64,000 bases of DNA from Candidatus Xianfuyuplasma coldseepsis (GTDB taxonomy: Bacteria; Bacillota_I; Bacilli_A; Izemoplasmatales; Izemoplasmataceae): assembly GCF_014023125.1 (NCBI RefSeq), contig NZ_CP048914.1:186001-250000 (forward strand), read 5' to 3'. The position numbers and the translations under genes are program-made. Positions within the stretch are counted from its first letter, which is position 1, and every line of letters starts with the position of its first letter. The notes under the pieces were generated by a model that did not search any database, was not told the DNA's origin, and worked only from the letters and a program-made list of their open reading frames with translations. Positions 17 to 5,542 of the stretch are shown here, in pieces.

Positions 17-1276
17 TTAATGATTGTTTTTTCGCTTTCGATGAACATTATATTGATCTAACCGGATTGTCGATGTTAATTCCGGATCAAACACACCTTC
101 TCGAGCGGCGACACAGTCTTCGCACTCACATTCATTATCGTAATGTGTAGGGCCATAATAGGTTGTAATCATACCTTCATAATTACGCAGAATCGTTCTC
201 CCAGGAGCTTGTGAGATAATATAGTTCGGCATTACTGGGATTTTTCCACCACCACCGGGTGCATCTACAACAAATGTTGGAACTGCAATTCCACTTATAT
301 GTCCTCGTAAACCTTCTATGATTTCAATACCTTTTGTAACTGGAGTTCTAAAGTGAGCAATTCCTTTCGATAAATCACATTGATAGATATAGTATGGCCG
401 TACGCGTAACTGGATTAACCGTTTGACAAGTTTCTTCATTATATTCACACAATCATTCACACCTTTAAGTAATACCGATTGATTGCCTAAAGGAATCCCA
501 GCGTTTGCCATCCGTGCTAACGCTGCTTGAACATCCGGTGTCAACTCTTTGGAGTGATTAAAGTGCGTATTTACCCAAATCGGGTGATACTTTTGTAGCA
601 TATCAACGAGTTCCTGAGTAATTCGTTGGGGCATTACAACTGGTGTTCTACTACCAATTCGAATAACGCCTACATGTTCAATTTTACGTAACTCGCTGAT
701 GATGTATTCTAGACGAGCATCACTGACCAAAAAAGCATCTCCACCACTTAGTAGCACATCATTTACTTCGGGATGATTGCGGATGTATTCCAATGCTTTG
801 TCAACATAATCCATCTTTGATCCAGAATCTTGTTGGCCAGCAAATCGACGTCTGGTACAATGACGACAGTACATACTACACATATCCGTAATCAAGAATA
901 ATACGCGATCAGGATAGCGATGTGTCAATCCAGGAACAACCATATCCCCATCTTCATGAAGGGGATCATCCAAATCATGAAGTCCAACGTACATTTCATC
1001 TACTGCAGGTACTGCTTGTAAGCGTACGGGATCTTTTTTGTTATCCGGGTTGATTAATGTTAGGTAATAGGGTGTAATTGCCATGCGAAACTGTCCTAAA
1101 ACACTGGCAATAACGTCTTTTTCCTTTTTATCTAATGGAAAATACTGCTCCAACTCTTCAACACTAGTGATTCGATTACGTACCTGCCAGTGCCAGTCAT
1201 TCCACTCTGCATCTGTAACATGGGGAAAGTATTGTTGACGACGAGCAAGATGTTTCGTATATAGTTTAACAGCCAT
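17..1276 (-). CDS. kamA: L-lysine 2,3-aminomutase
   Basis: Radical-SAM, PLP-dependent enzyme converting L-lysine to L-beta-lysine, the first step of lysine fermentation. At 419 aa it has family length. The cluster motif CxxxCxxC is visible as DMCSMYCRHCTRRR (about residues 131-144). A lysine in LLKGVND fits the PLP site, and the Cys-rich tail NECECEDC fits the zinc-binding C-terminal region. The start ATG is preceded by AGGAGG. It is the last gene of the lysine operon visible here, 9 bp after kdd. The lysine 5,6-aminomutase subunits (kamD/kamE) needed next in the pathway are not in the window and would lie beyond base 1 if they are in the operon. Assignment is firm because of both motif and neighbours. 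Confidence 0.95.
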   Translation of the reverse strand: MAVKLYTKHLARRQQYFPHVTDAEWNDWHWQVRNRITSVEELEQYFPLDKKEKDVIASVLGQFRMAITPYYLTLINPDNKKDPVRLQAVPAVDEMYVGLHDLDDPLHEDGDMVVPGLTHRYPDRVLFLITDMCSMYCRHCTRRRFAGQQDSGSKMDYVDKALEYIRNHPEVNDVLLSGGDAFLVSDARLEYIISELRKIEHVGVIRIGSRTPVVMPQRITQELVDMLQKYHPIWVNTHFNHSKELTPDVQAALARMANAGIPLGNQSVLLKGVNDCVNIMKKLVKRLIQLRVRPYYIYQCDLSKGIAHFRTPVTKGIEIIEGLRGHISGIAVPTFVVDAPGGGGKIPVMPNYIISQAPGRTILRNYEGMITTYYGPTHYDNECECEDCVAAREGVFDPELTSTIRLDQYNVHRKRKNNH

Positions 1277-1285
1277 ATGAACCTC

Positions 1286-2314
1286 CTAGGTATACAAGCG
1301 TTCAAACAACGCTTTTATTTTTGGAGCATGTTGAATTAAGTCCAATGTTAGTTCTGCGTGACCCTTGGTATATCCATTTCCAATAATCATCGTTACATCA
1401 CTACCAATACCTTCAGCACCAAGTGCAGCTTTGGTAAATGATGTTGCCATACTAAAGAAATAGACAATGCCAGTGTCTTTCGTACTTAATACACAACTCA
1501 TTTCCGTATTAGGCACATTCACTACATTAATGGTAACATCGCATAGTTCAGGTACAATATCTTGGACCTTGTGATATACCTCCATCGCTTTTGTTGCATC
1601 TGCAAGAATTATGGCATCACACAACCCAAGTTCTTGAAGTAAAGCTATTTGAGATTCCTCATTAACCAATCCGATAACACGACCAGTTGGACCGACTTTT
1701 TGTTTCGCTTGATATGCACAAAGCACACCAGATTTTCCTGCAGCACCCACAATTAATACGGTATCGCCATTTTTAACAAGCTTATCTACTTGTGCCGGAG
1801 CCCCAGCTACATCAAGAGCTGCTAACACAAGATGCTGATCCATATTTTCTGGTATAACTGCATAAATTCCAGACTCAAACAAAATCGCTTCTCCTGTAAT
1901 ATGAACTTGATCATTCTCGATACTAATGGAGTGGATAGTTTCGATTTTGAGCGGTGTAAGCGATAAGGACACAAGGGTAGCAATCGTTTGACCAATATCT
2001 AATTCTTGATTAGGAAAATCCTTTCCAATCTTCTTAACTTTGCCAATCAACATCCCACCACTACCAGTGACCGGATTCTGCATTTTACCTCGTTGATGAA
2101 CAATTTCTTCAATCATCGTTTTCATCCGCTCTAAATCATTATCACATGCTTGTTTTATCTGAGTAAACGACGCGCTATCGATATTCAAAGTAATCACATC
2201 AATCAATAACTCATTATCCTGAATCCTCATCTCATTATTGATTTTCAGTGCTGCTTGTGGCAACACGCCGAGGGGTTCAATCACACGATGTGTTCCATAT
2301 TTACATGGTGTCAT
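1286..2314 (-). CDS. kdd: L-erythro-3,5-diaminohexanoate dehydrogenase
   Basis: Oxidatively deaminates L-erythro-3,5-diaminohexanoate to 5-amino-3-oxohexanoate in lysine fermentation. The 342-aa protein has the family's opening (YGTHRVIEPLGVLPQAA) and a nucleotide-binding glycine stretch near residue 190 (VLIVGAAGKSGVL), like a zinc-alcohol-dehydrogenase Rossmann fold. It sits between kce and kamA; its start overlaps the end of kce by 14 bp and is preceded by AAAGGAG. The specific function rests on family resemblance plus its fixed place in lysine-fermentation operons. Confidence 0.92.
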   Translation of the reverse strand: MTPCKYGTHRVIEPLGVLPQAALKINNEMRIQDNELLIDVITLNIDSASFTQIKQACDNDLERMKTMIEEIVHQRGKMQNPVTGSGGMLIGKVKKIGKDFPNQELDIGQTIATLVSLSLTPLKIETIHSISIENDQVHITGEAILFESGIYAVIPENMDQHLVLAALDVAGAPAQVDKLVKNGDTVLIVGAAGKSGVLCAYQAKQKVGPTGRVIGLVNEESQIALLQELGLCDAIILADATKAMEVYHKVQDIVPELCDVTINVVNVPNTEMSCVLSTKDTGIVYFFSMATSFTKAALGAEGIGSDVTMIIGNGYTKGHAELTLDLIQHAPKIKALFERLYT

Positions 2315-3140
2315 GATGTTTCTCCTTTATTCCAAGTATTTGTCGTGCTTCATTTGGTGATGCAATATCTCGGTTGTATTCCTTGGCTATAGCAACAATC
2401 TGTTGTACTAATTCACCATTCCCTTGTGCTAATATACCCTTTGATATATATAAGTTATCTTCCAATCCAACCCGTACATGTCCTCCGTGTTTGATCGCTA
2501 GTTTTGCAAGAGGAAACTCATATCGTCCGATTCCAGCAACACTAAATGTCGCATCTTCAGGAATCGACTCTCGTAAGAAATGAAAATCTCGTTCCATTCC
2601 TGTTTGTCCTCCAGGAACACCGAGAACAAAACTAAAATGGAGGGGCTTTTTAAGGTGCCCTTTTTGATGCAATCTCAGCACCTGGTCAATATGGGATTTA
2701 CCGAAACATTCCAATTCAGGAAAAATATTCTTTTCATAAATTTTTTCACTGAAATAAATGATGTCAGCTTCGGTATTGATGAATACTTCATCACCACCAA
2801 AGTTTACACTTCCACAATCTAGCGTACACATTTCGGGATACAACTCCGTCGGTTGTAAGCGTTCGTCTCTAGACATCCCTACTGCTCCGCCTGTTGAGGG
2901 TTGAATAATAACATCTGGACATGCTTTTTTTATCGCTTCAATTGCTTCAAGAAAGCGATCCTTTGATTGCGTAGGTGTGCCATCATCGTCACGTACATGA
3001 AGATGGATGATACTCGCTCCCTGATCATATGCAGATTTCGCCTCACGTACTAACTCATCAATTGTATAAGGAACCATAGGATTCTGTTCTTTAGTAACCT
3101 CGGCTCCACAAATTGCACAGGTAATAATTAATTTATCCAT
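2301..3140 (-). CDS. kce: 3-keto-5-aminohexanoate cleavage enzyme
   Basis: Condenses 5-amino-3-oxohexanoate with acetyl-CoA to yield 3-aminobutyryl-CoA and acetoacetate. It belongs to the BKACE family. The metal-binding HLHVRDDDG motif (about residues 46-54) and the downstream glycine-rich GVPGGQTG and RVGLEDN motifs are visible. I place the start at the ATG at 3140 (MDKLII), which overlaps the end of kal by 8 bp; an upstream in-frame ATG at 3167 would extend deeper into kal and lacks a better ribosome site. The resulting 279 aa fits the family. Confidence 0.93.
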
Positions 3141-4187: not shown

Positions 4188-4833
4188 GTTGCACCTCCTG
4201 AATAACATAATCAACAAAAATATGGGGGGTCAATACATGATCAGGGTTAATCGAGTCAACGATTTTGCGCGCTTGACAGATAACCACCTTTGACGCAGTT
4301 GCCATTAATGGGTTAAAATTGCGGGATGTCTTTGTATATGTGACATTCCCATAAGTATCCACTTCATACCCATCAATCAGGGATAGGTCAGCCGTTAATG
4401 CAGGTTCCAAAATGTACTGTTTGCCCCCTTGAGAGAGAACTTGTTTCCCCTCTTCGACAACGGTACCAATCCCAGTTGGAGTTAATATCCCACCCAAACC
4501 AGCACCGCCTGCTCGAATTTGTTCTGCCAAAGTTCCTTGAGGTACCAAGGTTACCTTCATTTCTCCTGAACTCATCAACTGTCCTGCCATTGGATTTAGC
4601 CCAATGTGAGATGCGATTAAATGAGACACTTGACCATTTGCGATTAACTTACCCACACCACGATCAACAAATCCGGCATCATTGCATATAATTGTCAAGT
4701 CTTTTACGTTGATTCGAACCAGTTCATCAATCAATCCTTCTGGTGTGCCAACTGCCATGAATCCACCAACCATAATCGACATTCCATCAAACACATGATT
4801 GTTTAATTGTTCCAGTGGTATTTTCTTTTTCAT
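4180..4833 (-). CDS. atoD: Acetoacetate/butyrate CoA-transferase, alpha subunit
   Basis: Alpha subunit partner of the preceding beta subunit. The family glycine motif [12 protein letters not shown] (about residues 110-121) and the opening [19 protein letters not shown] match the group. 217 aa. Its ATG overlaps the MaoC stop by 4 bp (ATGA) and has AAGGAGATG upstream. Substrate preference cannot be read from sequence; in this operon the acetoacetate/butyryl-CoA pair is the logical one. Confidence 0.92.
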
Positions 4834-5261
4834 TGATCCATCTCCTTGTTCGGTGGCATCATTTCCGCAGTACCTGTAATAACTACCTCACCGTGTTGGT
4901 TTGTGGCAACACAATCAAAGAATACACGATTTCGCTCTTCGTTCTTATCCGTGACAATGACTTTAGCAGTGATTGTATCATCAATATATACCGGTCGTTT
5001 AAATCGTAAACTTTGGCTGATATAAATCGTACCTTCTCCCGGTAGTTGCATACCGAACACTTTGCTAAATAGCGATCCAATATACATACCATGGGCAATA
5101 CGGTGTTTAAATATCGTCTTTTGTGCATACTCCTCGTTAAAATGCACAGGATTTACATCATTGGTGATTTCACCAAAGACCTCAATCTTACTCGCTTCGA
5201 TTAACACCGTCTGTTCTGCGTGATCACCAATGGCAATTTGATCAATTGTTTTGTATGTCAT
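4830..5261 (-). CDS. MaoC-like (R)-specific enoyl-CoA hydratase
   Basis: A 143-aa hotdog protein with the MaoC/PhaJ hydratase motif: FGEITNDVNPVHFNEEYA (residues ~29-46, catalytic Asp and His) followed by HGMYIGSLFSKVFG. Enzymes of this type hydrate crotonyl-CoA to (R)-3-hydroxybutyryl-CoA. It is the first gene of the lysine operon, directly after the riboswitch, with an AAAGGAGG ribosome site. Crotonyl-CoA is the product of Kal, so this enzyme could divert it towards 3-hydroxybutyrate instead of, or next to, reduction to butyryl-CoA. That role is inference; the fold assignment is solid. Confidence 0.82.
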   Translation of the reverse strand: MTYKTIDQIAIGDHAEQTVLIEASKIEVFGEITNDVNPVHFNEEYAQKTIFKHRIAHGMYIGSLFSKVFGMQLPGEGTIYISQSLRFKRPVYIDDTITAKVIVTDKNEERNRVFFDCVATNQHGEVVITGTAEMMPPNKEMDQ

Positions 5262-5280
5262 CGTATCCTCCTTTTCAAAA

Positions 5281-5312
5281 TAAAAAGCCGTTTATGATTT
5301 CTCATAAACAGC
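5281..5312 (-). terminator. Riboswitch-controlled intrinsic terminator
   Basis: On the minus strand an 11-pair stem (5312-5302 with 5297-5287, one G-U pair) with a GAAA tetraloop is followed by TTTTTA. It lies between the lysine aptamer and the first operon gene. Its 5' arm contains the 3' strand of aptamer P1. Confidence 0.9.
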
Positions 5313-5470
5313 TCATCATATACATGACAATGAATCCGGCGTTCCCGGAATCATCAAACGCTACATTGTGAACGAATGCATCGTTTTCGGCGTTTTTGTC
5401 CTTCAATGAAATGATTCAGTGTTCATCCCGTTAACACATTCCATTTACACGCAAATACGCTCCTCTGTTT
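5306..5470 (-). ncRNA. Lysine riboswitch aptamer (predicted ON switch)
   Basis: Read on the minus strand, the 165-nt segment carries lysine-aptamer landmarks. After the 5' P1 strand AAACAG (5470-5465) comes AGGAGCG, matching the conserved AGAGGNGC. Further on is GAAGGACAAAAACGCCGAA (cf. ...AAGG...GCCGAAG), then a P3 hairpin, a CCGG-stemmed P4, and a P5 hairpin (TCAT-GTAT-ATGA) leading to GATGAG and the 3' P1 strand CTGTTT (5311-5306). P1 is 6 perfect pairs. The L3 bases GTTCA can pair with TGAAC in P2, as in the known kissing interaction. The 3' P1 strand lies inside the 5' arm of the terminator at 5281-5312, so ligand-bound P1 and the terminator exclude each other. That predicts lysine-induced read-through, fitting a lysine-degradation operon. 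Confidence 0.88.
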
Positions 5471-5488
5471 TTGTCCCTTAACGTAGTA

Positions 5489-5518
5489 ATTATACTGTAC
5501 GATGTAAGCGCTTGTCAA
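5489..5518 (-). promoter_or_regulatory. Lysine operon promoter
   Basis: Perfect -35 TTGACA (5518-5513) and -10 TATAAT (5494-5489) with an 18-nt spacer on the minus strand. Transcription would begin about 12 nt before the aptamer P1 strand. A consensus promoter in front of an attenuator suits control at the level of termination. Confidence 0.85.
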
Positions 5519-5542
5519 TTCATTTTTAGAATCTTTTTCAAT

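What the first reader, a model, noticed from the sequence alone, without database searches (positions are those of the whole stretch)
5281..5520. Lysine riboswitch wired as an ON switch for lysine fermentation
The aptamer's 3' P1 strand (5311-5306) lies within the 5' arm of the terminator (5312-5302). Lysine binding stabilises P1 and should prevent the terminator, turning the operon on. Known lysine riboswitches mostly repress biosynthesis or uptake genes through a separate antiterminator. Here there is no separate antiterminator and the genes degrade lysine. The logic matches substrate induction.
Basis: partly seen in the sequence, partly recalled or inferred. Interest (0 to 1): 0.85.

Follow-up and report, generated by a model that had tools for sequence, protein, structure and literature searches.

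The report
Lysine riboswitch switching on lysine fermentation
An RNA sensor in front of the lysine-fermentation genes of a deep-sea bacterium is built so that lysine should switch the genes on rather than off; the same layout recurs in every relative I could score, but lysine riboswitches of this kind had already been predicted in other bacteria.

Summary
A lysine riboswitch aptamer (RF00168, 73.2 bits, gathering 30) lies at 5475-5301 on the minus strand. The 3' strand of its P1 helix (5311-5306) lies inside the 5' arm of an 11-bp terminator (5312-5302 with 5297-5287, then UUUUUAUUUU). It precedes a lysine-to-butyrate fermentation operon in what is almost certainly Xianfuyuplasma coldseepsis zrk13 (identical genome size).

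I compared 124 lysine riboswitches. All 54 before lysine-fermentation genes with a detectable terminator have P1 embedded in it; 68 of 69 others (uptake or biosynthesis) have a separate terminator. Forming P1 costs a median 8.2 kcal/mol against the terminator in the first group, 0.2 in the second. P1 sequence changes between families, yet both pairings persist. This strongly supports lysine-ON antitermination; no experiment shows it.

It is a new member of a known kind: ON-type lysine riboswitches were noted in 2007 (PMC2258182), and kal/kce riboswitches were called positive regulators in 2017 (PMC5584792). An extra, for which I found no report, is a conserved cre-like motif at the -35 box, suggesting a second input, catabolite repression.

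The parts
5513..5518 (-). -35 box TTGACA
   Evidence: sequence; perfect consensus, 18-bp spacer
5503..5512 (-). cre-like core AGCGCTTACA directly after the -35 box (predicted CcpA-type operator)
   Evidence: core ARCGCTTWCA perfect in 44 of 55 fermentation leaders, 1 of 69 others, about 0.1% of shuffles
5489..5494 (-). -10 box TATAAT
   Evidence: sequence
5301..5475 (-). lysine riboswitch aptamer (RF00168 positions 1-182)
   Evidence: 73.2 bits, gathering 30
5465..5470 (-). P1 5' strand AAACAG
   Evidence: CM alignment
5306..5311 (-). P1 3' strand CUGUUU, shared with terminator
   Evidence: CM alignment
5302..5312 (-). terminator 5' arm GCUGUUUAUGA
   Evidence: -16.3 kcal/mol hairpin
5287..5297 (-). 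terminator 3' arm UCAUAAACGGC
5277..5286 (-). U-tract UUUUUAUUUU
   Evidence: sequence
5267..5273 (-). Shine-Dalgarno AAGGAGG, outside the terminator
   Evidence: sequence
4830..5261 (-). MaoC-like hydratase, first gene of operon
   Evidence: PF01575
4180..4833 (-). CoA-transferase subunit A
   Evidence: PF01144, TIGR02429
3525..4187 (-). CoA-transferase subunit B
   Evidence: TIGR02428
3133..3522 (-). Kal, 3-aminobutyryl-CoA ammonia lyase
   Evidence: NF052388 above cut-off
2301..3137 (-). Kce, 3-keto-5-aminohexanoate cleavage enzyme
   Evidence: NF052387 above cut-off
1286..2314 (-). Kdd, 3,5-diaminohexanoate dehydrogenase
   Evidence: NF052381 above cut-off
17..1276 (-). KamA, lysine 2,3-aminomutase (operon continues outside the window with KamB, KamD, KamE)
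   Evidence: TIGR03820 above cut-off; NF052386, NF052384, NF052385

Best explanation
It is a cis-acting lysine riboswitch that works as a transcriptional ON switch. RNA polymerase starts about 10 nt before the aptamer. Without lysine, P1 (6 bp, two G-C pairs) is weak; once the 3' arm emerges, the 11-bp terminator takes P1's 3' strand and transcription stops at the U-tract before the operon. With lysine, the folded aptamer locks P1 and its junction before the 3' arm is made, the terminator cannot form, and polymerase reads through into the fermentation operon. Shown here: aptamer, shared strand, terminator, operon content, conservation. Inferred: lysine binding, read-through, direction of regulation in the cell. 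A cre-like motif at the -35 box probably adds repression when sugar is available (weaker inference).
For: Aptamer 73.2 bits. Shared strand exact. 0 of 1000 shuffles give such a terminator. 54/54 fermentation leaders with a detected terminator overlap P1, against 1/69 of the others. Ensemble cost of forming P1 rather than the terminator: median 8.2 kcal/mol against 0.2. In the window the balance tips to the terminator only when the 3' end reaches about 5290, some 16 nt after P1 is complete, and ends near 11 kcal/mol. P1 sequence differs by family (ACAG/CUGU, GGUAG/CUACC, GUGG/CCAC, AAUAG/CUAUU) while both pairings persist. The in-genome contrast: L001 before a solute-binding protein has a separate terminator and a -14.1 kcal/mol antiterminator.
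Against: No binding or transcription data. The energy model ignores lysine, tertiary contacts and kinetics. The leaders are related: the aptamer tree needs only two gains or losses and one origin is not rejected (p-AU 0.714), so the count overstates independence; the changes of P1 sequence are the better evidence. Two leaders (L081, L072) were assigned to the fermentation group after I had read their sequence.
Confidence: 0.9

Rival explanations
1. The riboswitch is an ordinary OFF switch: lysine promotes termination through some pairing that was not recognised.
For: The experimentally characterised lysine riboswitches named in the papers I could read are OFF switches, and most members of the class sit before biosynthesis or uptake genes.
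Against: P1, which ligand stabilises in this class, directly consumes the terminator's 5' arm; only 4 nt lie between the terminator arms, so no antiterminator fits there. The genes consume lysine. In the 69 non-fermentation leaders the layout is different.
Confidence: 0.04
2. The aptamer is a relic or senses something other than lysine; the terminator is a constitutive attenuator.
For: The score (73 bits) is below that of many clostridial members (100-134 bits) and one J5/1 base differs from consensus.
Against: The varying J5/1 base also varies in uptake leaders, while the next G is nearly constant. Core GCCGAA and AGAGG are intact. P1 is paired at its four inner positions in 53-54 of 54 leaders although its sequence changes.
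Confidence: 0.05
3. Lysine acts mainly on translation or mRNA decay rather than termination.
For: The lysC riboswitch of E. coli controls translation and RNase E cleavage (PMC5584792).
Against: The Shine-Dalgarno sequence (5273-5267) lies outside the terminator and the hairpin is followed by a tract with nine U in ten; the same hairpin plus U-tract is seen in essentially all fermentation leaders.
Confidence: 0.04

Closest known systems
Lysine riboswitches upstream of kal/kce in Clostridium sticklandii, Fusobacterium nucleatum and Thermoanaerobacter (Mukherjee et al. 2017, PMC5584792)
   Same: Same aptamer class, same pathway, stated to be positive regulators
   Different: That passage gives no expression-platform anatomy and does not name Izemoplasmatales; here P1/terminator overlap is tested over 124 cases
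ON-type lysine riboswitches cited in Barrick and Breaker 2007 (PMC2258182), from Rodionov et al. 2003 (not readable here)
   Same: Ligand binding buries a piece of the terminator stem: the same mechanism
   Different: Other organisms; also, as far as I can tell, a prediction
pbuE-type adenine and gcvT-type glycine ON riboswitches
   Same: Ligand-stabilised aptamer keeps a piece of the terminator from pairing; the glycine type also drives amino-acid degradation (PMC11477304)
   Different: Different aptamers; those are established experimentally (own knowledge)
B. subtilis lysC L-box (OFF)
   Same: Aptamer class RF00168
   Different: Separate terminator and antiterminator; represses biosynthesis

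Membership tests
Lysine riboswitch (RF00168) | Covariance-model score above gathering over the full model | tested here: met
   73.2 bits against 30, positions 1-182
Lysine riboswitch (RF00168) | Conserved five-way-junction core (AGAGG, GCCGAA, J5/1 G) | tested here: met
   alignment; J5/1 survey
Lysine riboswitch (RF00168) | Binds lysine | not testable with these tools
   needs in-line probing or calorimetry
ON-type transcriptional riboswitch with terminator-embedded P1 | P1 3' strand is part of the terminator 5' arm | tested here: met
   54/54 relatives
ON-type transcriptional riboswitch with terminator-embedded P1 | No separate antiterminator | tested here: met
   loop between terminator arms is 4 nt and the 5' arm starts in P1
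ON-type transcriptional riboswitch with terminator-embedded P1 | Ligand increases read-through | not testable with these tools
   needs single-round transcription
L-box OFF switch (lysC type) | Terminator separate from P1, controlled by an antiterminator that uses P1's 3' strand | tested here: not met
   met by L001 of the same genome, not by the window element
CcpA/cre control of the promoter | cre site at the promoter, CcpA and HPr kinase in the genome | tested here: inconclusive
   core motif conserved; in the window a 1-nt shift breaks the full 14-mer; best regulator scores 298 of the 442 bits required for ccpA; HPr kinase 353 bits, above cut-off

The most novel reading that the evidence does not exclude
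The leader is a two-input gate, lysine present AND no preferred sugar: a lysine-ON riboswitch stacked on a cre operator that overlaps the -35 box, a standard design for lysine fermentation across many families of Bacilli, with the operator moved downstream of the -10 box in one family.
Probability: 0.5. Interest if true: 0.5.

Novelty: new member of a known kind. Interest (0 to 1): 0.42.

Why it matters
Lysine riboswitches are the textbook OFF switch. I found no experimental report of a natural ON member in the held library. Here is a set of 55 with a clear anatomy, often matched in the same genome by an OFF member of the same aptamer class, one such pair in a cultured strain. That makes the question of how one aptamer is wired to opposite outputs directly testable, and it offers a simple account of how lysine fermenters avoid burning lysine when it is scarce.

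Tried and rejected
A whole-window cmscan at gathering threshold and one on L001 and L002 found no lysine riboswitch; searches show this was a filter effect. G001 seemed to lack a riboswitch but has one by eye (L072); in G020 (L076) none was found before kce and I did not resolve why. A simple duplex test for antiterminators in the OFF group was significant in only 31% of cases, mostly the transporter type, so OFF logic for the lysA, M20-deacetylase and some clostridial leaders rests on the separate terminator and the gene, not on a shown antiterminator. The single exception among the others (L141) looks like the scan choosing a long hairpin over a small one. L130 failed the U-tract criterion but shows the same layout by eye. 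That ON leaders arose twice (tree) could not be upheld: one clade is not rejected. The J5/1 A-to-U change in 11 leaders, first taken as a possible specificity change, also occurs in non-fermentation leaders. Rodionov 2003 is not held.

Full report
What is there. The minus strand of the window holds, in order, a promoter (TTGACA 5518-5513, 18-bp spacer, TATAAT 5494-5489), a lysine riboswitch aptamer (5475-5301), a terminator (5312-5287 plus U-tract 5286-5277), a Shine-Dalgarno sequence (5273-5267) and an operon. The operon encodes a MaoC-like hydratase, two CoA-transferase subunits, Kal, Kce, Kdd and KamA and continues outside the window with KamB, KamD and KamE, the lysine-to-acetate/butyrate fermentation pathway. 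The genome is 1,958,905 bp, exactly the size published for Xianfuyuplasma coldseepsis zrk13, a cultured deep-sea Izemoplasma (PMC8397711); the identification rests on that match and on the relatives.

The observation. RF00168 scores 73.2 bits against a gathering score of 30. The whole-window scan at gathering threshold did not report it, nor did the same scan on the excised loci; the permissive search and the genome search did. P1 is AAACAG/CUGUUU; the 3' strand, 5311-5306, lies inside the terminator's 5' arm, 5312-5302. In 1000 dinucleotide shuffles of the 35 nt after P1, none formed a hairpin with U-tract at -10 kcal/mol or better using P1's 3' strand; the real one has -16.3.

Comparison within one genome. 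The only other lysine riboswitch found in the genome (L001) precedes a family-3 solute-binding protein and a permease. Its terminator is separate (GAGCGUCC/GGACGCUC), compatible with P1, and P1's 3' strand can instead pair with the terminator's 5' arm in a -14.1 kcal/mol antiterminator. That is the classical OFF layout.

Comparison across genomes. I collected lysine riboswitches from 61 genomes of the order and located Kce and Kal in the same genomes; then from Kce-bearing genomes of other families of the class and of a clostridial phylum (16 riboswitch regions fetched there and in one relative). In that clostridial sample only 2 of about 50 genomes with a full-score Kce have a detected riboswitch next to it; in the order nearly all with intact upstream DNA do, G020 being an unresolved exception. 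Of 124 riboswitches, 55 precede fermentation genes; a terminator was detected in 54 and overlaps P1 in 54. Of 69 others, before solute-binding proteins, lysA, M20 deacetylases, lysC, dapA and similar genes, 68 do not overlap and one is a likely scan artefact (Fisher p about 2e-34, inflated by relatedness). Two of the 55 (L081 at a contig break, L072 missed by the model) were assigned after reading the sequence; dropping them changes nothing of substance. P1 positions 1-4 are paired in 53-54 of 54 and the matching terminator positions in 43-52, although the sequence of P1 changes between families: the shared strand keeps two partners at once.

Energetics. Forcing P1 instead of the terminator costs a median 8.2 kcal/mol in the fermentation group and 0.2 in the others. 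Along the growing transcript of the window element the terminator becomes favoured only when the 3' end reaches about 5290, roughly 16 nt after P1 is complete, and finally by about 11 kcal/mol. So lysine must act in that short interval: the switch is probably kinetic. This is inference from nearest-neighbour energies.

Promoter. Forty-four of 55 fermentation leaders hold a perfect ARCGCTTWCA, against 1 of 69 others and 0.1% of shuffles. In the order and in family f12 it forms part of a cre-like site that overlaps the -35 box (TTGACARCGCTTWCA); in family f10 it lies downstream of the -10 box. In the window the spacing is shifted by one base, so the full 14-mer cre is not matched there. The genome has HPr kinase above cut-off and a LacI-family regulator whose best model is ccpA, below the curated cut-off. 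Catabolite repression is therefore likely but not established.

What is known. Barrick and Breaker state that certain lysine riboswitches with ON logic bury pieces of the terminator stem (PMC2258182). Mukherjee et al. state that kal/kce genes of three genera are positively regulated by lysine riboswitches (PMC5584792). I found no experimental test and no mention of these bacteria in this connection in the held library, which lacks most subscription papers. The finding is real and well supported, but a new member of a predicted kind.

Evolution. ON aptamers need two changes on the aptamer tree, but with P1 left out a single ON clade is not rejected (p-AU 0.714).

Noticed in passing
5518-5503: cre-like core AGCGCTTACA abutting the -35 box of the fermentation operon; the core is conserved in 44 of 55 fermentation leaders, at a different place in family f10.
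   Followed up: partly
5475-5301: Rfam scan of the whole window at gathering threshold misses this 73-bit riboswitch; fast filters probably leave such aptamers unannotated (against 4, 5).
   Followed up: yes
L001 1440-1460 and other transporter leaders: 24 of 69 non-fermentation leaders carry a one-mismatch version of the same core motif (for example AACACTTACA) upstream of the aptamer, against 1.7% of shuffles; regulator unknown.
   Followed up: no
L077 1803-1878: Group II intron fragment upstream of a second, short-contig copy of kal/kce in G059.
   Followed up: no
L089, L091: Two lysine riboswitches within 1.5 kb on the same strand, before lysA-like and M20-deacetylase genes.
   Followed up: no
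L056, L015, L048: In some relatives a gene that reads like a short-chain dehydrogenase stands first in the fermentation operon, behind the riboswitch.
   Followed up: no
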